Positions 911 to 31,981 of a stretch of 49,885 bases of DNA are shown here, one piece after another; within the stretch, counting starts at the first letter, position 1; each line of letters opens with the position of its first letter. Below the pieces are notes generated by a model. The model worked only from the letters and a program-made list of their open reading frames with translations. It searched no databases and was not told the DNA's origin. Location of the stretch: positions 1 to 49,885 of IMG/VR virus record IMGVR_UViG_3300034121_001439. The stretch is one strand, 5' to 3'. Both the position numbers and the translations under genes were made by a program. Origin of the DNA: a virus.

Positions 911-946
911 AAAACTATCCCCCTTTCAATTAGATTGGGGGATTTT
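911..946. terminator. Bidirectional terminator between convergent genes
   Basis: The inverted repeat ATCCCCC (917-923) / GGGGGAT (937-943) is preceded by an A-run (911-914) and followed by a T-run (943-946). It can therefore form a G+C-rich hairpin with a U-tract on either strand. It sits between the + gene ending at 901 and the - endonuclease gene, whose stop codon at 930-932 lies in the loop. Confidence 0.7.
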
Positions 947-2552
947 CATACACCCATTTTTTAGACCCACAGTCGTAAATTCTTAGTAACCCAATTTCTT
1001 CAGTTATTTCTCTTTCACTTTTATTTGGGTCATAACCTTTGGATACTAATACATCTTTTCTATAATTAAATCGATTAATTCTTTTTCTACCCTCTAAATA
1101 GAAATAATTAGGTTTTGTTTCACCAATAAAATTAAACCCAAGATTTTTATATAAATTACCGGTGAAATATCTATTATCTGAAAATGAAATAATAGTTAAG
1201 GGGTTATATGTTTTAATAAAGTATTTAAATAATTTACTCGCCCCACCCAATATTATAGTATTTTTTAAATTACAAAATCTAACCATTTCGTAAGAACCTT
1301 CTTTATTAGTCATACCTAAAGATTTTCTCAATGATCCGAATGTCATGACCGAAACTAGTTCATCATTATTATATAAACCTATTTTAATTTTAGAATTACT
1401 ATGTCCTTGTATATGGTTATCATCAATGAATTCTTTACAAGTTTTATTATCAATTTCTTTAATTACACATTCTCTCCCATAAATCTTTCTTTCAAAAATA
1501 TTTAAATTTGTTTTTATGATAGACTTAACGATATCTCTTTTTTCTAACCATTCGTCTTCAAATATCTGAATTAATTGATAATCATTTGTTATACATTTTT
1601 TATATTTTTCTAAATGGTATGTATCTTTTAAATAATAAGATGAATTAGATAATAAATCATTATATTCTATACCAATTTTTTTATTAGATATTATAATATC
1701 TATTTCTTGGGGGGATATAAATTTCCTATCTTTTTCAATTATATCTTCATTGGGGAGTATTTCTTTGATAAATTCAAATACTTCTTTTTCATTATAACTG
1801 ATAGAATTTGTAACTGGATTACATAGGGTACATAATTCAACATTTAAATTTTTCCTATGATATAATACAGTTCTTTTTATTATATAAATTTCACCACATT
1901 TTTCACATTTAATTTCAATATCATTACCGTGGTGAGATATTACATCCAAATCTTTATATTTCTCAATAAAAAATTCTTTCCGTTTATTTAATGATTTCTT
2001 TATATTTTCCGGATCCAATAAATTCGTTTTATGACCATACTTAATTAAATTGGTGTTATTTATTTTTTCCCTAATACCATCAATTTCACTCACAGTTTCT
2101 ACACCATATTTCTTTAAAAATGAATCCTTTATTATATCTTTTCTTTCAAAGATATTTTCAACACCAAATTTTTCTTTGGTTTTTTCTTTTACCTTATTCC
2201 TAATAATTTCCGATGATGAACCTTGTCCACCATATTTCTCAATATTAGTCTCTTTGACCTTTTCTTTGTGTTCATCACATTTATTCGTACAAGATAATGA
2301 ACAGTATTTACCATAACCTTCATTAAGACTTTTTTTAAATTTTAAAGGTTTATTACATATATAACATAATACAACTTGATTAACATTATTAATGTAATGC
2401 CAAATCTTTTCTTTGAATGGTATTTCTTTTAAATCACCCTTATTAAAATCAATGATTTCACCATATAATGATGGGAAATTATTTTTTAAATAAATTTCTT
2501 GTGTCTTTTTACCATTTTTATTGTCATTTAAGAAAAATTTTTTCAAATCCAT
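930..2552 (-). CDS. Free-standing phage endonuclease with C-terminal GNAT-like domain (copy 1)
   Basis: 540-residue protein, the only convincing minus-strand gene in the window, paralogous to the + gene at 3165-4835. Visible layout: N-terminal region with a zinc-type CxxC...CSLSC site (about residues 63-92); modular '..KEKFGVEN..' / 'KKYGVETVS' repeats typical of DNA-contacting modules in phage endonucleases; a second CxxC pair (CEKCG...CTLCNP); a Vsr/PD-(D/E)xK-like core (EIDIIISNKKIGIEYNDL, then IQIFEDEW); and a C-terminal domain of about 180 residues (NHIQGHSNSKIKIGLYNND, FSDNRYFTGNLYKNLGF) resembling GNAT-type acyltransferase folds. Compared with its paralogue, the expected catalytic His is Asn303, so this copy may be catalytically weak. 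Orientation against its neighbours and the lack of any tail role suggest an invasive homing-type gene. Confidence 0.75.
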   Translation of the reverse strand: MDLKKFFLNDNKNGKKTQEIYLKNNFPSLYGEIIDFNKGDLKEIPFKEKIWHYINNVNQVVLCYICNKPLKFKKSLNEGYGKYCSLSCTNKCDEHKEKVKETNIEKYGGQGSSSEIIRNKVKEKTKEKFGVENIFERKDIIKDSFLKKYGVETVSEIDGIREKINNTNLIKYGHKTNLLDPENIKKSLNKRKEFFIEKYKDLDVISHHGNDIEIKCEKCGEIYIIKRTVLYHRKNLNVELCTLCNPVTNSISYNEKEVFEFIKEILPNEDIIEKDRKFISPQEIDIIISNKKIGIEYNDLLSNSSYYLKDTYHLEKYKKCITNDYQLIQIFEDEWLEKRDIVKSIIKTNLNIFERKIYGRECVIKEIDNKTCKEFIDDNHIQGHSNSKIKIGLYNNDELVSVMTFGSLRKSLGMTNKEGSYEMVRFCNLKNTIILGGASKLFKYFIKTYNPLTIISFSDNRYFTGNLYKNLGFNFIGETKPNYFYLEGRKRINRFNYRKDVLVSKGYDPNKSEREITEEIGLLRIYDCGSKKWVYENPPI

Positions 2553-3156: not shown

Positions 3157-3174
3157 TACGATATATGGATTTTT
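3142..3174 (+). promoter_or_regulatory. Hairpin that buries the endonuclease start codon and may terminate the tube transcript
   Basis: AAAAATCCGTATAT (3142-3155) pairs with ATATATGGATTTTT (3161-3174) over 14 positions with a single G-U pair, leaving a 5-base loop (TTACG). The ATG at 3165-3167 lies inside the 3' arm. A T-rich stretch follows, so the same structure could act as terminator of the tail tube transcript. Established precedent: in T4, translation of some homing endonuclease genes from read-through early transcripts is blocked by hairpins over the start region. Confidence 0.7.
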
Positions 3175-4835
3175 CTTTTTTTACAACAGATAATAAGTCA
3201 GGATATAAGACTAAAGAGTCATGGTTTTCTAAAAACCATAAAGATGTATATGATAAAATCATAGAACATTCTAACACACATGATTTAAACAATCATTCGT
3301 TTAAGGAAAAAATTTGGAATTATTTTCATAGTATAACTCAAAAACCAAAATGTTTACATTGTGAAAATTCAACGACTTTTACTGATAGATTTGATAGAGG
3401 ATATAATAAATTCTGTTCATTAGAATGTGGTAATAAAAGTGGTCTGTTGAATGATTTCGCGAAAGTAAAAATGAAAGAAAAATGGGGTGTTGAATATTTT
3501 TCTCAACACCATACCTATGTCGATAAAGTTAAGAAAACTAAATTAGAAAAGTATGGTGATGAAAACTATACAAACATAGAAAAAAGTAAAAAAACTAGAT
3601 TGGAAAGATATGGTAATGAAAATTACAATAACGTAGAAAAAAGTGAGAAAACATCGTTAGAAAGATATGGTGTGTCAAATCCATCAAAATCTAAATTAAT
3701 TAAAGATAAAATTATTGAAAATAATTTAAAAAAATGGGGGTACATTTCACCGATATTACATCCGGACATAATTTCTAAAAGAGATAATACAGTACTTAAA
3801 AAAATTAAAAGTAGATTCAAAGATAATGAGTTTATATCCTTTGATAAAATAACTAAAGAATTTACATTAAAATGTCAAAAATGTGATTCTGAATATCAAA
3901 TTTTTAGTCCTTTTTATAATCTAAGAAGAAGATGTGGGTATGAAACTTGTTTAATATGTAATCCAATAGATTCGTTATCATCACATAGAGAAAAAGAAAT
4001 TTATAATTTTATACTAGATATTGGGGTTAAAAATGTCATTGAAAATGATAGGTCTATGATTAAACCATTAGAATTGGATGTTTATTTACCAGATCATAAA
4101 TTAGGTATTGAATTTAATGATTTATACTTTCATTCAGATTTATTTAAATCTGAAAATTATCATCTTAATAAACAGAATAAATGTATTGAATCTAATATTG
4201 ATTTGATACATATTTTTGAAGATGAATGGTTGTATAAAAAAGAAATTGTTAAATCCATCATTAAAAATCGTCTAAGTATTAGTGAAAATAAAATTTACGC
4301 GAGAAATTGTACCATTAAAGAATTGGATAATAAAACTTGTAAAAAATTTCTAGAAGATAATCATATTCAAGGTAATTGTTTATCCAAAGTTAAATTAGGT
4401 CTTTTCCATAATGATATATTAGTTTCAGTAATGACATTTGGTACTCGTTCTGGTATTGGTAATAATAAAGAAAACTATTCAGAATTATTAAGATTTTCTA
4501 ATTTAATTAATCATAGTATTATAGGTTCTGGGTCTAAATTATTTAGTTATTATATTAAACATTATAATCCAACTATGGTATTGAGTTATTCTGATAATAG
4601 ATTATTCGGTGGTGGTTTATATCAAAAATTGGGTTTTATTGAAATCCATAAAACAAAACCTAATTATTGGTATGTTAAAAACGATATAAGATTACATAGA
4701 TTGAATTTTAAAAAGAATAAATTAGTTAAAGAAGGGTTTGATCCATCTAAAACCGAAAAAACCATAATGTCTGAACGTGGTTTTAAAAGGATTTATGATT
4801 GTGGTGTCACTCGTTGGGAATGGAAAAAAAATTAA
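3165..4835 (+). CDS. Free-standing phage endonuclease with C-terminal GNAT-like domain (copy 2)
   Basis: 556 residues, clearly paralogous to the minus-strand gene at 930-2552 along its full length (for example FKEKIW, GY.K.CSL.C, DNKTCK.F...NHIQG, RIYDCG). Order of parts: zinc-type CLHC...CSLEC site (about 66-94); at least three tandem 19-residue repeats of the form L-E-[KR]-Y-G-[DN]-E-N-Y about residues 126-175; a second zinc-type site (CQKCD...CLICNP); a Vsr/PD-(D/E)xK-like core with LELDVYL (Asp305) and IEFNDLYFHSD (His323), then IHIFEDEW; and a GNAT-like C-terminal domain ending in GVTRWEWKKN. The nuclease residues that are altered in copy 1 are intact here. Probably a homing endonuclease; target unknown, but likely near the tail tube gene. 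Confidence 0.78.
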   Translation: MDFSFFTTDNKSGYKTKESWFSKNHKDVYDKIIEHSNTHDLNNHSFKEKIWNYFHSITQKPKCLHCENSTTFTDRFDRGYNKFCSLECGNKSGLLNDFAKVKMKEKWGVEYFSQHHTYVDKVKKTKLEKYGDENYTNIEKSKKTRLERYGNENYNNVEKSEKTSLERYGVSNPSKSKLIKDKIIENNLKKWGYISPILHPDIISKRDNTVLKKIKSRFKDNEFISFDKITKEFTLKCQKCDSEYQIFSPFYNLRRRCGYETCLICNPIDSLSSHREKEIYNFILDIGVKNVIENDRSMIKPLELDVYLPDHKLGIEFNDLYFHSDLFKSENYHLNKQNKCIESNIDLIHIFEDEWLYKKEIVKSIIKNRLSISENKIYARNCTIKELDNKTCKKFLEDNHIQGNCLSKVKLGLFHNDILVSVMTFGTRSGIGNNKENYSELLRFSNLINHSIIGSGSKLFSYYIKHYNPTMVLSYSDNRLFGGGLYQKLGFIEIHKTKPNYWYVKNDIRLHRLNFKKNKLVKEGFDPSKTEKTIMSERGFKRIYDCGVTRWEWKKN

Positions 4836-26116: not shown

Positions 26117-27064
26117 ATGGAAAAAATTTTAACAGAAAACAAAGATAGATTTGTAATTTTCCCTATACAACATAATGATATTTGGGAATATTATAAAATG
26201 CATCAAGCAGCATTTTGGACGGCTGAAGAAGTTGATTTAACTAATGATATTAGGGACTGGGAAAATTTAAGTGATAATGAAAAGTATTTCGTTAAGAATA
26301 TATTATCGTTTTTTGCTGCATCAGATGGGATTGTTAATGAAAATCTAGCTGAAAATTTCTATAGAGAAGTTCAATATCCTGAAGCTAAATTCTTTTATGG
26401 CTTTCAATTAGCGATGGAAAATATACATTCATTAATGTATTCATTATTAATCGATACATATATTTCTAACCCTAAAGAAAAAGATGAATGTTTTCATGCA
26501 ATAGATAGATTACCGGCTGTTAAGAAAAAAGCTGGATGGGCTTTAAATTGGATTAATAACGCATCTTTCCAAGAAAGATTAGTAGCATTTGCTGCGGTTG
26601 AAGGTATATTCTTTTCAGGATCTTTCTGTTCAATATTTTGGTTAAAATCTAGAGGTATATTACAAGGGTTATGTAATGCTAATAGTTTGATTTTTAAAGA
26701 TGAGAATTTACATTGTGATTTTGCAATACATTTATTGAATAATCATCTTAGTACTAAACCATCAGAAAAAAGAATAAAAGAAATTATATTATCAGCATTA
26801 GATATTGAAAAAGAATTTATAACAGAATCTTTACCGGTATCATTAATCGGAATGAATAGTAATTTGATGAAACAATATCTTGAATTCGTAACAGATCAGT
26901 TATTAGTTAAAATGGGTTGTAGTAAAGAATTTAATGTAGAACAACCATTTAAATTTATGGAACAAATTGCTATTGAAACTAAAGGTAATTTTTTCGAATC
27001 AAGAACTATGGAATACCAAAAAGCTAAATTAAACGAAACAATAACATTTACAGAAGATTTTTAA
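26117..27064 (+). CDS. nrdB: Ribonucleotide reductase small subunit (class I, NrdB)
   Basis: 315 residues. Supplies the tyrosyl radical for dNTP synthesis by NrdA. Diiron ligands and radical tyrosine appear in the expected spacing: [10 protein letters not shown] with E101, H104 and Y108 (E-x2-H-x3-Y as in E. coli E115/H118/Y122), [10 protein letters not shown], and [11 protein letters not shown] (E-x2-H). The C-terminus ITFTEDF is the type of acidic-aromatic tail that docks to the large subunit. The gene is intact, without intein, and nrdA starts one base after the stop codon (TAATATG). Confidence 0.93.
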
Positions 27065-27065
27065 T

Positions 27066-28667
27066 ATGTTAAGTATAATAAAAAGAACAGGTGAGAAACA
27101 AAGTTTTAACCCTACAAAAATTTACAATAGGATTAAAAAAGCGTCTAAAGGTTTAGATGTTAATCCAGATGAAATCTTTATTAAAGTAATAACTTCAGTA
27201 CCTACTGAAGGTAGTATTACTACTAAAGAATTAGATAAAATTATATATGAAATTTCAGCGTCATATACTGGTAGTCATTATGATTATTCTAAATTAGCAT
27301 CTTCTATTGCTATATCTTCATACCATAAAGAAACTACTGAAAGTTTTAGTGAAACAATGCATACACTACATGTTGATGGTATTTTAAATAATGAATTTAT
27401 GTCAATTGTTGAGAAATACGGACCATCAAAAATTGACGAAGTTATTAAACACGATAGAGATAATAATTTTGATTATTTTGGGTGGAAATCGTTAAAAGAT
27501 ATGTATTTACTAAAAACTAGTGAAGGTGTAACTATAGAAAGACCTCAACATATGTATATGAGAGTTGCTTTATGGGTTACTAAAACTTTTGAAGATGCAG
27601 TTGAATATTATAATTCATTATCAAATCAATTGATTTCACCGGCTACACCAATTTTAATTAATTCTGGTACTAAAAAACCTCAATTAGCATCTTGTGTATT
27701 AGCTTTTAATAGTGGTGATTCAAGAGAAGGTTTATTAGATACATTGAAAGATATTTCAATTTATTCTTCTGATGCTGCCGGTATTGGTTTATCTATGTCA
27801 AATATTCGTAGTAAAGAAAGTAAATTATCTTCATCTGGTGGGTATGCTGGTGGGTTATTAAAATACCTTAAAATTGTTAATGAGTCATTAAGATTTTTTA
27901 ATCAACAAGGTAGAAGACCAGGTAGTGCGGCGATCTATATTGAACCTTGGCATAAAGATATTTTTGATTTATTAGATATTAAGAAAAATACTGGTGCTGA
28001 AGAATTAAGAGCTAGAGATTTATTCACGGCTTTGTGGGTAACAGATAATTTTATGAGAGCAGTTGAAACTAATGGTGATTGGTATTTATTCTGCCCTAAT
28101 GATATTAAAAAAGCTGGTCTAAAACCTTTACATGAGATTTTTGGTGAAGAATATGAAAATGAATATAATAAAGCCGTTGAATTAGGTTTAGGTAAAAAAG
28201 TTAAAGCTACTGAAATTTGGGTTAAAATAATTGAATCTCAAATTGAAACTGGTGTACCTTATTTAGCATCTAAAGATAATGCCAATTCAAGAAGTAATCA
28301 AAAAAATATTGGTACTATTAAACAAAGTAATCTTTGTTGTTTAGTTGGTGGTACAATACTAACAATTAAGAGAGAAAATGGGGATGTTGAAAACATTTCA
28401 ATTTCAGAAGTTGTTGATTTAATTAATACATCTGAAAGATTAATGGTCTTAACAAAAGATGGTAATTTTTCTTTAATTAGTGCCGGTATGTTAACTAGAA
28501 AAGAATCTGAAATTTTAGAAATATTTGATGAGGATAGTAATTTAAGTTTAAAATGTACTCCTGATCATCTTATATTCACTAAAAATAGAGGGTATGTTAG
28601 AGCTGATGAATTAAACGAAAATGATATTCTAGATATTAAATACAATTTAGAATATTCAATGATTTAA
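27066..28667 (+). CDS. nrdA: Ribonucleotide reductase large subunit, piece 1: N-extein plus intein N-half
   Basis: 533 residues. Residues 1-424 are the NrdA N-terminus: ATP-cone-like start (SIIKRTGEKQSFNPTKIYNR), ISPATPILINSGT, QLASCVLAF with C210 (redox-active Cys, E. coli C225), 'SDAAGIGLSMSNIRS', and FNQQGRRPGSAAIYIEPWH. It ends in TIKQSNLC, where C424 corresponds to the thiyl-radical Cys (E. coli C439). From residue 425 an intein N-half begins (CLVGGTILTI...), with block-B-like LKCTPDHLIFTKNRGYVRAD, and the ORF stops at 28665-28667. The protein cannot be a complete reductase: the remaining catalytic Cys, Tyr-Tyr and C-terminal CxxC lie in the next two pieces. Confidence 0.92.
   Translation: MLSIIKRTGEKQSFNPTKIYNRIKKASKGLDVNPDEIFIKVITSVPTEGSITTKELDKIIYEISASYTGSHYDYSKLASSIAISSYHKETTESFSETMHTLHVDGILNNEFMSIVEKYGPSKIDEVIKHDRDNNFDYFGWKSLKDMYLLKTSEGVTIERPQHMYMRVALWVTKTFEDAVEYYNSLSNQLISPATPILINSGTKKPQLASCVLAFNSGDSREGLLDTLKDISIYSSDAAGIGLSMSNIRSKESKLSSSGGYAGGLLKYLKIVNESLRFFNQQGRRPGSAAIYIEPWHKDIFDLLDIKKNTGAEELRARDLFTALWVTDNFMRAVETNGDWYLFCPNDIKKAGLKPLHEIFGEEYENEYNKAVELGLGKKVKATEIWVKIIESQIETGVPYLASKDNANSRSNQKNIGTIKQSNLCCLVGGTILTIKRENGDVENISISEVVDLINTSERLMVLTKDGNFSLISAGMLTRKESEILEIFDEDSNLSLKCTPDHLIFTKNRGYVRADELNENDILDIKYNLEYSMI
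28338..28664 (+). other. Split intein 1, N-half (109 aa)
   Basis: Begins with the nucleophilic Cys (CLVGGTIL) directly after SNLC and contains the block B motif TPDH (in LKCTPDHLIF) plus the segment TKNRGYVRADELNENDIL. The latter is very like the published split intein NrdJ-1 from metagenomic data. It lacks the C-terminal HN motif, which is found in the next ORF. No endonuclease domain. Confidence 0.9.
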
Positions 28668-28670
28668 TAT

Positions 28671-28689
28671 TAAAATAAACTATAAAACT
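28671..28689 (+). repeat. 19-base sequence shared with the region after the tail sheath gene
   Basis: TAAAATAAACTATAAAACT at 28671-28689 is identical to 100-118. Here it forms most of the 30-base gap between pieces 1 and 2 of nrdA. It could be a promoter-type element or simply an A-rich translation-initiation leader. Confidence 0.5.
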
Positions 28690-28697
28690 AATATAAA

Positions 28698-28796
28698 ATG
28701 TTAAAAATTAAAAAATTAAATGAAAGGGAAGATGTATATGATATACAAGTCCCAGAAACATCTTGTTTTTATGCAAACAATGTTTTAGTACATAAT
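28698..28796 (+). other. Split intein 1, C-half (33 aa)
   Basis: MLKIKKLNEREDVYDIQVPE continues to SCFYANNVLVHN. Block F (VYDIQVPET..CFYANN) and block G (VLVHN) are complete. The +1 residue is Cys (C-E-I-F). Joining to C424 of piece 1 restores SNLC-CEIFQV, matching the NrdA pattern SNLC-x-EI. Length and sequence resemble the C-half of the NrdJ-1 split intein. Confidence 0.9.
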
Positions 28797-29684
28797 TGTG
28801 AAATTTTTCAAGTTACAGATGAGTCGACTACGGCTATCTGTACCTTATCTTCAATTGTCTTGAAGAATTTTTTAAATGATGGTAAATTTAATTTTACAAC
28901 ATTATATAATGAAACTAGAAAAATTACCAGAGCATTAAATCATGTGATTGATATAAATAATTATTCAACTGAAAAAGGTCAAAAAGGTGGTTTAGAACAA
29001 AGAGCGATTGGTATTGGTGTACAAGGATTAGCCGATGTTTTTTATTTGTTGGATTATGAATTTACATCAGATGAAGCTAAAAAATTAAATAGAGAAATAT
29101 TTGAAACTATTTATTTTGCCGCATTAACTGAGAGTAATGAATTGTGTAAAAATGGTTCTTATTCTCCGTATCAATACTTTAAAAATTCTCCGATATCAGA
29201 AGGAATTTTTCAATTTGATATGTGGGGTTTAGATAAAGTTAATTTAAGTGGTATGTGGGATTGGGATTCATTAAGACAAAGTATTATAACTCATGGTGTA
29301 TCAAATTCTTTGGTTACAGCACAGATGCCGGTAGCTTGTCAGACATCTGATACTAAAATTATCACTGAAAATGGTATAATGAGTTTTAGAGATATATGTG
29401 AATTGAATGATATTAATGTAGATTTGATTGAGACAAGTAATGTAGGCGGAGTATGGTACGAATTTAAAAATCCTATTTCAGTAAAAACAATGGATGGTTA
29501 TTCAATTTCAAATAAAATTTATTACAATGGTCATAGTGAAATTATTAATTTAGAAATGGAAGATGGTACTAACTTTAAATGTAGTCCAGAACATAAATTT
29601 TTAGTTAATAGAGATGGTGAAAATATCTGGATTAAAGTTAAAGATTTAGTTGAAGGGGATGATATAATAAATATTAATCAATAA
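28698..29684 (+). CDS. nrdA: Ribonucleotide reductase large subunit, piece 2: intein C-half, middle extein, second intein N-half
   Basis: 328 residues in three parts. Residues 1-33 are the C-half of intein 1, ending in NNVLVHN. Residues 34-213 (CEIFQV ... TAQMPVA) are the middle of NrdA, with E of the NxCxE active-site motif, TTAICTLSSIVL (Cys equivalent to E. coli C462) and RAIGIGVQGLADVFYLLDYE. Residues 214-328 are the N-half of a second intein (CQTSDTKIITENG onward), after which the frame stops. The start ATG follows a 30-base gap after piece 1. The protein would have to splice at both ends to become part of an active enzyme. Confidence 0.92.
   Translation: MLKIKKLNEREDVYDIQVPETSCFYANNVLVHNCEIFQVTDESTTAICTLSSIVLKNFLNDGKFNFTTLYNETRKITRALNHVIDINNYSTEKGQKGGLEQRAIGIGVQGLADVFYLLDYEFTSDEAKKLNREIFETIYFAALTESNELCKNGSYSPYQYFKNSPISEGIFQFDMWGLDKVNLSGMWDWDSLRQSIITHGVSNSLVTAQMPVACQTSDTKIITENGIMSFRDICELNDINVDLIETSNVGGVWYEFKNPISVKTMDGYSISNKIYYNGHSEIINLEMEDGTNFKCSPEHKFLVNRDGENIWIKVKDLVEGDDIININQ
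29337..29681 (+). other. Split intein 2, N-half (115 aa)
   Basis: Starts at Cys after MPVA (CQTSDTKIITENGIMSFRDI), with block B-like FKCSPEHKFLVNRDGENIWI and a terminal VKDLVEGDDIININ. The extein upstream ends VTAQMPVA. Different in sequence from intein 1, which would help keep the two splicing reactions specific. Confidence 0.9.
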
Positions 29685-29690
29685 ACTGGC

Positions 29691-29776
29691 ATTTGCGTGT
29701 TAAAAAAATAAAAAACATACTATTTATTAATTAAAATAGGTAAAATGGAAAAATTATTTTTAAATAACACGCAAAT
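29691..29776 (+). promoter_or_regulatory. 12-bp inverted repeat enclosing the homing endonuclease start
   Basis: ATTTGCGTGTTA (29691-29702) and TAACACGCAAAT (29765-29776) are perfect complements. The G+C-rich core stands out against its surroundings. The 62-base interior holds the A-rich leader, the ATG at 29745 and the first codons, so the paired RNA would enclose the translation start. Confidence 0.65.
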
Positions 29777-31226
29777 TAAAACTATTAATGGTTTAATTAA
29801 TTTCATTAAAAAATTTGATGGTGAAAATATTCTAATCAATGGTAATGGAATTTCATTATTTAAGTTATTAGATATTAATGATGAAAATGTTAAACCATCT
29901 GAGTTAGTAGATCTTTTCTTAAAAAATAGAAAAAATATTAGGAGTATTATTAAGTATATTAGTAATAATAAAAATAATTTGGATATTGAAAGGATGGGGA
30001 AGTTTATAGAGTATAGAAGTAAATATAGTAATGTTTCAAATACTAAAGATTTCTTAACTTTAATGTATGGTTATGATATTGGTATGGAAAAATTTAAAAA
30101 AGAACAAAATAAATTTTCAAAATATTATGATATCAAATATTATTTGGATTTAGGTTTTACCGAAGAAGAATCATTAGAAAAAATATCTGAATATAAAAAA
30201 AATAAATCTACTAATAAAGAAAATTTCATTAAAAAATATGGACTAGAAGATGGGGCAAAAAAATATAATGATTATGTTGAAAAGAGTAAAAATACGGTAG
30301 AAAATTTTAAAAAAAGATATGGTGATAAATGGGAAGAAAAATGGGGTAATTATATAAGTAAAGATTCATCATCATTTTATTGGGCTCTGAATAAATCTAA
30401 TGGTGATGTAGAATTAGCTGAAAAAATTTTTAAAGATAAGAATAAAAAATCTACAATAGATTTAAATTATTTCCATAAAAAATATGGTAAAGATCTAGCA
30501 GAATCAAAATGGTTGGAATTTAATTCTAAGAAAGATTCTAGTAGTTTAAATTATTTTTTAAAAAAATATAATGATATTGAAGTAGCTAATGAAAAATATG
30601 AGGAATCTAAAAAATATAAAGATTGTGGTAGTTTAGAATATTTTTTAAATAAATATGGGGATAAAGGTGAAGAATTATATCAAAAAAAATGTAAAATGTC
30701 TGATAATAAATCTTTAGGATATTTTTTAAAAAAAACTAATGACTATAATTTAGCTTATGAAAATTATATTAAAGCACAAGAAAAAATAAAAGTTAAGGCG
30801 TTAAAAGCTAGTAAATCTAGTTTAAATCATTTTAAACCATTATATGATTTTTTAATTAAAAAAAATATTAGTAATTTTGATGATATTTTTTTAGGTATTG
30901 ATGAAAGTAGAGAATTTTTTATTAGAGAAGGTAAAAAAATATTTTTTTATGATTTTGTAATACCTAATAAAAAAATTATAATAGAATATAATGGTAAGGC
31001 TTGGCATCCTAATTGGGAAAAATATGGTATAAATGAGGCGATTAAAAATTTTAAAAATAAAAATATAAATCCAATAGAATCAATAAATAAAGATAAATTT
31101 AAAATAGAATTAGCGTTTAAAAATGGGTTTGATGTTTTAATTTTATGGGAAGAAGATGGGTTTAATTTTAATGAAAATAAATTAAAAAATTATTTAAAAA
31201 CAAAAAATATAGATTATGAAAATTAA
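29745..31226 (+). CDS. Homing endonuclease of the Vsr-like EDxHD family, inserted between the halves of intein 2
   Basis: 493 residues. The C-terminal about 110 residues form a Vsr-like nuclease core: REFFI with E390, FYDFVIPNKKIIIEYNGKAW with D403, WHPN with H421, and NKDKFK with D450, ending FDVLILWEED. This E-D-x-H-D pattern is that of the I-Bth0305I family, first described with 'fractured' split-intein genes. The middle (about 140-350) carries imperfect repeats such as SSLNYFLKKYND and GSLEYFLNKYGD, probably DNA-contacting modules. It overlaps the third nrdA piece by 11 bases. It would cut intein-free nrdA alleles to spread the insertion. Alanine is rare and A/T-ending codons dominate. 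Confidence 0.85.
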   Translation: MEKLFLNNTQIKTINGLINFIKKFDGENILINGNGISLFKLLDINDENVKPSELVDLFLKNRKNIRSIIKYISNNKNNLDIERMGKFIEYRSKYSNVSNTKDFLTLMYGYDIGMEKFKKEQNKFSKYYDIKYYLDLGFTEEESLEKISEYKKNKSTNKENFIKKYGLEDGAKKYNDYVEKSKNTVENFKKRYGDKWEEKWGNYISKDSSSFYWALNKSNGDVELAEKIFKDKNKKSTIDLNYFHKKYGKDLAESKWLEFNSKKDSSSLNYFLKKYNDIEVANEKYEESKKYKDCGSLEYFLNKYGDKGEELYQKKCKMSDNKSLGYFLKKTNDYNLAYENYIKAQEKIKVKALKASKSSLNHFKPLYDFLIKKNISNFDDIFLGIDESREFFIREGKKIFFYDFVIPNKKIIIEYNGKAWHPNWEKYGINEAIKNFKNKNINPIESINKDKFKIELAFKNGFDVLILWEEDGFNFNENKLKNYLKTKNIDYEN

Positions 31227-31323
31227 AAAAATAACTAAATTAGAAAATACTCAAGCAGTATGGGATATAGAGGTTGAAAATGATCACCATTATATAACTG
31301 AAAATGGTTGTGTTAGTCACAAT
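31216..31323 (+). other. Split intein 2, C-half (36 aa)
   Basis: MKIKKITKLENTQAVWDIEV continues to DHHYITENGCVSHN. Block F (VWDIEVENDHHYIT) and block G (CVSHN) are complete; the penultimate His and terminal Asn are present, and the +1 residue is Ser31324. Its start codon lies inside the end of the endonuclease gene. Confidence 0.9.
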
Positions 31324-31929
31324 AGTTCAGCCAAAATTACTGGTTCATTTGAAATGACAGAACCGGCACATTCGGCCATCTTCAATCGAAGAGTTATTGG
31401 TGGTGAAATCACTATCGTTAATAAATATTTAATTGAAGATTTTAAAAAATTAGGTATGTGGTCAGAACAGTTCAAGAATGAGATTATAGTTAATGAAGGT
31501 TCAATACAAAATATCAATTTTAATAAATATTTAGACCCAGAGGATAAAAATTATCAGAAGAAAATTAAGAGAGTTGAACATTTATTGAAAAAATATAAAA
31601 CTATTTGGGAAATTTCACAAAAAGAATTAATTGATATGGCGGTTGATAGAGGACCTTTTATTGATCAATCACAATCTATGAATATCTATATGAATAATCC
31701 TACTTTATCTAAAATTAGTTCATCTCATCTATATGGTTGGAAAAAAGGTTTAAAAACATTATCTTATTATTTAAGAACTAAGGCCATTAGTACTGGGGCT
31801 AAACATTTGGCAGTAGATATGGCTAAGATGAATGAAAATAAAAATTCAGAAAAATTACCAGAAAATAAAGTAGTTATACCTAAAAAACCAGAAAATAGTG
31901 AATTTGAGTGTTTTGGTTGTTCTTCATAA
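31216..31929 (+). CDS. nrdA: Ribonucleotide reductase large subunit, piece 3: intein C-half plus C-extein
   Basis: 237 residues. Residues 1-36 are the C-half of intein 2, ending in CVSHN. The extein (residues 37-237) starts SSAKITGSFEMTEPAHSAIF. Joined to piece 2 it gives MPVA-SSAKITG, matching the phosphate-binding loop of class I NrdA (E. coli PSETSSQ; eukaryotes MPTASTAQ). SYYLRTKA contains the Tyr pair of the radical-transfer path (E. coli Y730/Y731), and the tail FECFGCSS carries the shuttle cysteines. With pieces 1 and 2 the ligated protein would be 805 residues, a normal NrdA length. A terminator follows. Confidence 0.92.
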   Translation: MKIKKITKLENTQAVWDIEVENDHHYITENGCVSHNSSAKITGSFEMTEPAHSAIFNRRVIGGEITIVNKYLIEDFKKLGMWSEQFKNEIIVNEGSIQNINFNKYLDPEDKNYQKKIKRVEHLLKKYKTIWEISQKELIDMAVDRGPFIDQSQSMNIYMNNPTLSKISSSHLYGWKKGLKTLSYYLRTKAISTGAKHLAVDMAKMNENKNSEKLPENKVVIPKKPENSEFECFGCSS

Positions 31930-31953: not shown

Positions 31954-31981
31954 CCCACCCCTAAATAAGGTGGGTTTTTTT
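31954..31981 (+). terminator. Rho-independent terminator after nrdA
   Basis: CCCACC (31954-31959) pairs with GGTGGG (31969-31974), followed by seven T residues (31975-31981). It ends the replication/nucleotide operon 25 bases after the last nrdA stop codon. Confidence 0.85.

What the first reader, a model, noticed from the sequence alone, without database searches (positions are those of the whole stretch)
27066..31929. NrdA encoded in three ORFs joined by two different split inteins
Seen directly: three in-order ORFs carry consecutive parts of class I NrdA; the junctions are intein N-half/stop/ATG/intein C-half. Ligation gives SNLC-CEIFQV and MPVA-SSAKITG and a protein of 424+180+201 = 805 residues. 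The middle piece carries a C-intein at its start and an N-intein at its end and must splice twice. Established: single split inteins in phage-like nrdA, nrdJ, gp41 and IMPDH genes are known from metagenomic 'fractured gene' work. A tandem double split in one enzyme, with both splice sites in catalytic motifs, is the least ordinary part.
Basis: partly seen in the sequence, partly recalled or inferred. Interest (0 to 1): 0.9.

Follow-up and report, generated by a model that had tools for sequence, protein, structure and literature searches.

The report
Phage enzyme spliced from three pieces
A bacterial virus appears to make its DNA-building-block enzyme (ribonucleotide reductase, large subunit) as three separate proteins that two different self-splicing elements stitch together, because two independent selfish DNA elements broke the same gene next to its active site.

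Summary
NrdA lies in three ORFs (27066-28667, 28698-29684, 31216-31929) whose exteins (424+180+201) join to an 805-aa enzyme with catalytic residues intact. Intein 1 is NrdJ-1-like; intein 2 is a homologous but distinct split intein. The locus is a gene fractured twice. In over 130 relatives both sites are empty, with no inserted base at either predicted junction. Relatives carry either unit alone, both units with two unrelated endonucleases (GIY-YIG at site 1, Vsr-like at site 2), decayed endonucleases, or a re-fused intein. Wherever intein 1 occurs in this clade, the residue after the radical cysteine is Cys (17/17); in empty alleles it never is (0/142). Intein 1 therefore brings its own +1 nucleophile, which argues that it splices. 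The double split is not unique: about ten distinct lineages carry it, including cultured Campylobacter phage WX1 and Klebsiella jumbo phage KP13-7, annotated there as fragments or hypothetical proteins. I rate it a new variant of the known fractured-gene/split-intein arrangement. Splicing itself is inferred, not shown.

The parts
26117..27064 (+). nrdB, small subunit of class I RNR, directly upstream
   Evidence: Pfam PF00268 E=9e-105
27066..28337 (+). NrdA extein 1 (424 aa: ATP cone, all-alpha domain, first part of barrel, ends at the radical cysteine ...SNLC)
   Evidence: Pfam ATP-cone, lgN, lgC 1-213; alignment to human RRM1
28338..28667 (+). Split intein 1, N-half (109 aa, C1, TPDH block B) and stop codon
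   Evidence: phmmer to NrdJ-1 intein 8ubs E=2e-13; empty-site comparison
28668..28697 (+). 30-nt spacer with further in-frame stops; place where relatives hold a ~390-aa GIY-YIG endonuclease ORF
28698..28796 (+). Split intein 1, C-half (33 aa, ends VHN)
28797..29336 (+). NrdA extein 2 (180 aa, CEIF...MPVA), +1 Cys
   Evidence: Pfam lgC 213-390; +1 Cys only in occupied alleles
29337..29684 (+). Split intein 2, N-half (115 aa, C1, SPEH block B) and stop codon
   Evidence: Pfam Intein_splicing 7e-15 in ORF 2; alignment A4
29691..29776 (+). RNA hairpin that encloses the endonuclease start codon; TATTTATT (29721-29728) lies inside it, 24 nt before the ATG
   Evidence: fold z=-5.8; all 8 site-2 endonuclease leaders pair the start codon, 7 of 8 hold the motif
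29745..31226 (+). Free-standing homing endonuclease ORF (493 aa): N-terminal repeats + C-terminal Vsr-like nuclease
   Evidence: same family sits between split-intein halves in topoisomerase, DNA polymerase and DnaB-type helicase genes
30777..31223 (+). Nuclease domain of that ORF (residues 345-493), invariant E, D, E and near-invariant H
   Evidence: 31-sequence alignment; AlphaFold pLDDT 91; Foldseek top hits Vsr and I-Bth0305I
31216..31323 (+). Split intein 2, C-half (36 aa, ends SHN)
   Evidence: Pfam Intein_splicing 122-155
31324..31929 (+). NrdA extein 3 (201 aa, SSAKITG..., YY pair, C-terminal CxxC) and stop
   Evidence: Pfam lgC 391-523
31954..31974 (+). Terminator-like hairpin (CCCACC/GGTGGG followed by T7) after nrdA
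   Evidence: sequence; inverted repeat reported by the scan on the other strand

Best explanation
The locus is a doubly fractured nrdA in a T4-like phage. Two independent mobile units, each a split intein with a free-standing homing endonuclease between its halves, homed into two active-site codons of one gene. The unit at site 1 (after the thiyl-radical cysteine, SNLC|C) has since lost its GIY-YIG endonuclease. The unit at site 2 (MPVA|SSA, substrate-binding loop) keeps a Vsr-like one. The three precursors NrdA1-IntN1, IntC1-NrdA2-IntN2 and IntC2-NrdA3 are translated separately. Two cognate trans-splicing reactions then make the 805-aa NrdA, which works with the adjacent NrdB. The site-2 endonuclease cuts nrdA alleles lacking the unit in co-infecting phages and is copied in by repair. 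Its start codon is held in a hairpin and freed only on transcripts started at a late-type promoter inside that hairpin, as in T4 I-TevI. Shown here: anatomy, empty sites, independent assortment of the units, constraint, +1 Cys association, endonuclease family. Inferred: splicing, homing, timing control.
For: Motifs and junctions. Empty alleles: insert length 0 at both sites in 137 fetched loci. Each unit occurs alone (site 1: L004, L172, L178, L183, L186; site 2: L089) and together (window, L001/L002). The residue after the radical Cys is C in 17/17 occupied and 0/142 empty alleles, with at least 6 forced occupancy changes on the extein tree. Third-position excess in every half and in the endonuclease, e.g. 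N-int2 vs L089 18/10/47. Spliced product aligns end to end with RRM1, E=3e-196. No other RNR barrel domain found in related near-complete records. Vsr-like nuclease. Hairpin and late-type motif; TATTTATA upstream of 54/97 gp25 genes but 1/117 nrdA and 1/82 nrdB.
Against: No biochemical or proteomic data. The two inteins are homologous (37% N-half, 41% C-half identity), so cross-splicing could occur: IntN1+IntC2 would delete extein 2, and IntN2+IntC1 on the middle piece would circularise it. N-half matches to the general Pfam intein model are weak for intein 1 (below its cut-off). Fold matches of the nuclease are modest (E 0.02-0.04, TM under 0.5). The late-promoter reading of TATTTATA is correlative.
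Confidence: 0.87

Rival explanations
1. The three pieces are not spliced; they fold together non-covalently into an active enzyme, as in phage Aeh1, and the intein halves are passengers.
For: Genes-in-pieces NrdA that works without splicing is established for Aeh1 (Friedrich 2007, cited in PMC3653736). Related loci L308, L310, L314 show an Aeh1-like break without intein halves near site 1.
Against: Intein halves keep all splice motifs and are constrained. +1 Cys tracks intein 1 perfectly. Unremoved 109- and 115-aa tails would sit directly on the radical cysteine and the substrate loop. Natural fused intein 2 in L003.
Confidence: 0.05
2. nrdA is decaying and non-functional, as was proposed for Campylobacter phages with interrupted nrdA (PMC3653736).
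For: Multiple breaks; the CPt10 gene is annotated as a pseudogene.
Against: Open frames and strong third-position excess in all exteins and intein halves; intact nrdB next door; catalytic residues kept; only RNR barrel found in near-complete relatives with the same layout.
Confidence: 0.04
3. The split state itself is kept by selection, as a device that times or limits RNR assembly; the endonucleases only created it.
For: Site 1 stays split after its endonuclease is gone, in the window and in L003, L291; site 2 likewise with a 9-54-nt spacer in L291 and L296-L299.
Against: Site 2 has been re-fused in L003, and is a fused intein in CPt10 and IBB_35, so re-fusion is tolerated. No regulatory signal was found at site 1 (no stable fold).
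Confidence: 0.08
4. The breaks are assembly or sequencing errors, or the pieces are joined at RNA level or by stop-codon readthrough.
For: Metagenomic contig.
Against: Four in-frame stops at site 1 and a 1.5-kb ORF at site 2; the same layout in independent assemblies and cultured phages; no RNA family at gathering threshold; each piece has its own ATG.
Confidence: 0.01

Closest known systems
Fractured genes of marine metagenomes (Dassa et al. 2009; not held, known from citing papers and own knowledge)
   Same: Enzyme gene broken by a split intein with a free-standing endonuclease between the halves; Vsr-like endonuclease family; nrdA among the hosts; phage setting; control elements arriving with the endonuclease.
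   Different: Two fractures in one gene by units with unrelated endonucleases (GIY-YIG and Vsr-like), so two orthogonal trans-splicing events are needed for one enzyme.
NrdJ-1 split intein (PDB 8ubs)
   Same: Intein 1 N-half is a sequence relative (E=2e-13); from own knowledge, NrdJ-1 sits at the corresponding cysteine of class II RNR.
   Different: Sits in class I NrdA one residue after the radical Cys and brings a +1 Cys absent from empty alleles.
Campylobacter phages CPt10, IBB_35, WX1 and Klebsiella phage KP13-7 nrdA
   Same: Inteins at both of the same sites. WX1 and KP13-7 are split at both with an ORF in each gap; CPt10 and IBB_35 are split at site 1 and fused at site 2. PMC3322345 reported two inteins in IBB_35 nrdA.
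   Different: Distantly related (about 24% identity in extein 2); site-2 endonuclease has an HNH-like instead of a Vsr-like catalytic end.
T4 I-TevI expression control
   Same: Endonuclease start codon in a hairpin with a late-type promoter inside it (own knowledge of T4).
   Different: Here in a split-intein unit, motif TATTTATA rather than TATAAATA; not tested experimentally.
Aeh1 genes-in-pieces NrdA
   Same: Phage NrdA encoded in pieces separated by an endonuclease gene.
   Different: Aeh1 pieces have no intein halves and assemble non-covalently.

Membership tests
Class 1 split intein (both elements) | Nucleophile C1, block B TxxH-like, block F D, block G HN followed by C/S/T | tested here: met
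   Int1: C, TPDH, DVYDIQV, VHN|C; Int2: C, SPEH (S in place of T), AVWDIEV, SHN|S
Class 1 split intein (both elements) | Two halves on separate ORFs at one insertion point of a host protein | tested here: met
   No inserted bases at both junctions in empty alleles
Class 1 split intein (both elements) | Splicing activity in trans | not testable with these tools
   Needs expression; indirect support from +1 Cys association and constraint
Fractured gene arrangement | Free-standing endonuclease ORF between the two intein halves | tested here: met
   Met at site 2 in the window; at site 1 only in relatives (L001, L002, L004, L172, L178), lost in the window
Vsr-like (EDxHD, I-Bth0305I-type) homing endonuclease | Vsr-type nuclease fold with conserved E, D, H | tested here: met
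   Invariant E46, D59, E70, near-invariant H77 in 31 sequences; Foldseek best hits 1vsr, 3r3p, 1cw0 with prob 0.85-0.92 but E 0.02-0.04
Vsr-like (EDxHD, I-Bth0305I-type) homing endonuclease | Cuts alleles lacking the insert | not testable with these tools
   Inferred from presence/absence pattern only
Class I RNR large subunit NrdA | ATP cone, barrel, two redox Cys, radical Cys, Tyr pair, C-terminal Cys pair | tested here: met
   Pfam and end-to-end RRM1 alignment
NrdJ-1-like intein | Sequence similarity to NrdJ-1 | tested here: met
   Int1 N-half E=2.1e-13 to 8ubs; int2 N-half has no such match
Aeh1-type non-covalent split NrdA | No intein halves at the break | tested here: not met
   Intein halves present at both breaks

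The most novel reading that the evidence does not exclude
Tandem double trans-splicing of one enzyme is a stable, repeatedly reached natural architecture in phages, in which the split state persists after endonuclease loss because it controls when active RNR appears; the two homologous inteins have been selected to ignore each other.
Probability: 0.13. Interest if true: 0.82.

Novelty: new variant of a known kind. Interest (0 to 1): 0.6.

Why it matters
This is a natural counterpart of laboratory tandem protein trans-splicing (three segments joined by two orthogonal split inteins), with two inteins that evolved side by side in one protein. It supplies new, naturally paired candidates for orthogonal split inteins. 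The relatives display each stage of a fractured gene: empty, one unit, two units, endonuclease decay, re-fusion. That makes the origin of split inteins testable. It also corrects the reading of some cultured-phage nrdA genes as pseudogenes, and shows that an intein can leave a mark (N/A/S to Cys) beside the radical cysteine of an essential enzyme.

Tried and rejected
Structure of the full 493-aa endonuclease: poor model (pLDDT 58), replaced by the nuclease domain with 31 relatives. Idea that the window's site-1 spacer keeps a remnant of the lost GIY-YIG gene: no clear alignment. A 106-bp 'insert' at site 2 in L147 is a tandem duplication, not an intein. Rfam search for introns: nothing at threshold. 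Link to the DUF7487 proteins of the window: hhalign 15%, only the EYNG motif. Idea that site-2 endonucleases with different nuclease ends share a site-specific body: the repeats are shared (hhalign 97.9%) but a helicase-gene endonuclease scores as high (L239), so site specificity is not shown. Literature search for a naturally doubly split enzyme found none in the held library, but Dassa 2009 itself is not held. Survey counts are not frequencies, because the tools return only the best 80 loci.

Full report
What is there. The window is a 49,885-base linear IMG/VR record of a T4-like phage: gp32-, uvsX/RecA-, exonuclease-, DnaB-type helicase-, nrdB-, nrdA-, gp25-like genes and a tail tube protein. 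nrdB (26117-27064) is followed by three in-order ORFs that share one class I RNR large subunit. The Pfam barrel domain runs 1-213, 213-390, 391-523 across them. Removing intein halves gives 424+180+201=805 aa, which aligns end to end with human RRM1 (E=3e-196). The radical cysteine, the redox cysteines, the tyrosine pair and the C-terminal CxxC are in place.

The breaks. Site 1 follows the radical cysteine (SNLC|CEIF). The two ORFs are in one frame with four stop codons in between. Site 2 lies in the substrate-binding loop (MPVA|SSAK; the structural role is own knowledge). Intein 1 is a relative of NrdJ-1 (8ubs, E=2e-13). Intein 2 is not recognisably so. The two are nonetheless homologous to each other: 37% (N) and 41% (C) identity, far above shuffles.

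Empty sites and assortment. 137 of the fetched loci have no insert at either site. Site 1 alone is occupied in L004, L172, L178/L179, L183, L186, with a 382-388-aa GIY-YIG-type ORF between the halves, and in L175-L177 and L185 with decayed remnants of it. Site 2 alone is occupied in L089 (intact Vsr-like ORF) and L090/L206 (frameshifted). Both are occupied in the window (site-1 endonuclease gone), in L001/L002 (both endonucleases intact), and in L003 (site 1 split by a 15-nt spacer, site 2 fused into a cis mini-intein). The extein tree needs at least 6 changes for the site-1-only group, and simple parsimony counts 7 for site-1 and 4 for site-2 occupancy. The units therefore behave as two independent mobile elements.

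A test of function. In the window's clade and the L291-L294 group, the residue after the radical cysteine is Cys in all 17 occupied alleles; in 142 empty alleles it is Asn (118), Ala, Ser or Ile and never Cys. A class 1 intein that uses Cys as its +1 nucleophile needs exactly this residue, so intein 1 carries its own nucleophile into the gene and splicing leaves a one-residue mark. Site 2 needs no such change (MPVA|SSA in both states). In other phages with an intein at site 1 (L296-L299, L289, Yersinia phage TG1) the intein begins one codon earlier, so the catalytic cysteine itself would be the +1 nucleophile (sequence reading). Codon-position counts show an excess of third-position changes in every extein, intein half and the endonuclease.

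The endonuclease. The last 149 residues belong to a family (31 sequences) with invariant Glu, Asp, Glu and a near-invariant His. The AlphaFold model is confident (pLDDT 91) and its best PDB matches are Vsr endonuclease and the I-Bth0305I catalytic domain (prob 0.85-0.92, E 0.02-0.04). Relatives lie between split-intein halves in genes read here as type II topoisomerase, DNA polymerase B, DnaB-type helicase and other nrdA genes. This fits the Vsr-like family of fractured genes described by Dassa et al. 2009 (own knowledge; the paper is not held, but is cited in PMC3653736 and PMC10448857). At site 2 of other phages (WX1, KP13-7, L307, L310) the ORF shares the N-terminal repeats (hhalign 97.9%) but ends in an HNH-like domain (sequence reading).

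Expression control. The window's endonuclease start codon is inside a hairpin of -22 kcal/mol (z=-5.8). In all eight site-2 endonuclease leaders folded, the start codon is paired. In seven, TATTTAT[AT] occurs (0.56 expected), six of them 18-24 nt before the ATG. TATTTATA stands upstream of 54 of 97 gp25 genes but 1 of 117 nrdA, 1 of 82 nrdB and 2 of 70 dnaB genes, so it looks like a late promoter element of this phage group. A transcript started there would lack the 5' arm of the hairpin. This is the I-TevI layout of T4 (own knowledge). It is inference, not shown.

How widespread. Double-split nrdA also occurs in L289/L290, L291, L292, L294, L296-L299 and L307 and in two cultured phages: Campylobacter WX1 (three pieces, ORFs in both gaps) and Klebsiella jumbo phage KP13-7 (also interrupted upstream by an HNH ORF, probably an intron). 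In near-complete records (162 kb, 171 kb, 178 kb, 358 kb) these pieces are the only RNR barrel matches. The IBB_35 paper reported two inteins in nrdA (PMC3322345). PMC3653736 called the CPt10 gene a degenerating pseudogene, whereas here CPt10 and IBB_35 read as a split intein at site 1 plus a fused intein at site 2. I found no held paper that describes a natural enzyme needing two trans-splicing events. Laboratory tandem trans-splicing from three segments exists (PMC12707363).

Mechanism and risk. Most likely the three precursors are made from the nrd operon and joined by two cognate trans-splicing reactions. The middle piece (IntC1-extein-IntN2) has the geometry used in the laboratory for protein cyclisation. 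Any cross-reaction of the related inteins would circularise it, or join pieces 1 and 3 into a dead 625-aa protein. Orthogonality is therefore a strong, testable prediction.

Verdict. The finding is real and well founded. It is a twofold, recurrent version of a known arrangement, not a new category. What is new: the double fracture, the assortment of two units with unrelated endonucleases, the +1 Cys mark, and the recognition of the same layout in cultured phages.

Noticed in passing
L081 (Campylobacter phage CPt10) 1915-5982; L082 (IBB_35): nrdA annotated as a pseudogene 'disrupted' by two CDS in CPt10 reads as a split intein at site 1 with two ORFs in the gap plus a fused intein at site 2; IBB_35 has a third, fused intein at RGGC..HN|SS.
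   Followed up: partly
L083 (Klebsiella phage KP13-7) 1977-7507; L289 in a 201-kb record: NrdA in four coding pieces: an upstream interruption by an endonuclease ORF (probably a group I intron, no Rfam hit in L083) plus two split inteins.
   Followed up: partly
L210 (Campylobacter phage PC14): The NrdA barrel N-part lies about 69 kb from the rest of the gene (record 28076-28732 vs 96988-98289), and the latter has a fused intein at site 2: a dispersed NrdA.
   Followed up: no
L308, L310, L311, L314: Aeh1-like break without intein halves near site 1 combined with a split intein at site 2 in the same nrdA.
   Followed up: no
window 164, 2555, 4857, 8990, 11419, 20007, 32016 (+): TATTTATA upstream of ORF starts, several of them structural; 54 of 97 gp25 homologues carry it within 70 nt of the ATG. 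Candidate late promoter of this phage group.
   Followed up: partly
window 930-2552 (-) and 3165-4835 (+): Two related DUF7487/Mom-like proteins flank the tail tube gene; a relative occurs next to nrdA in Yersinia phage TG1. Likely free-standing homing endonucleases.
   Followed up: no
window, upstream of the ORFs listed: No clear Shine-Dalgarno-like sequences before the starts, only A-rich leaders, and nrdA kinship to Tenacibaculum and Cellulophaga phages: host probably Bacteroidota.
   Followed up: no
window 29690-29702, L001, L089: CATTTRCGTGTTA conserved just after the stop of NrdA2, though its full pairing partner is present only in the window.
   Followed up: partly
L292, L294 leaders of the site-1 endonuclease: Near-perfect hairpins of about 21 bp (CAGTACGTAGTGTAC...) upstream of the GIY-YIG ORF, with TATTTATT at their 3' edge.
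   Followed up: no
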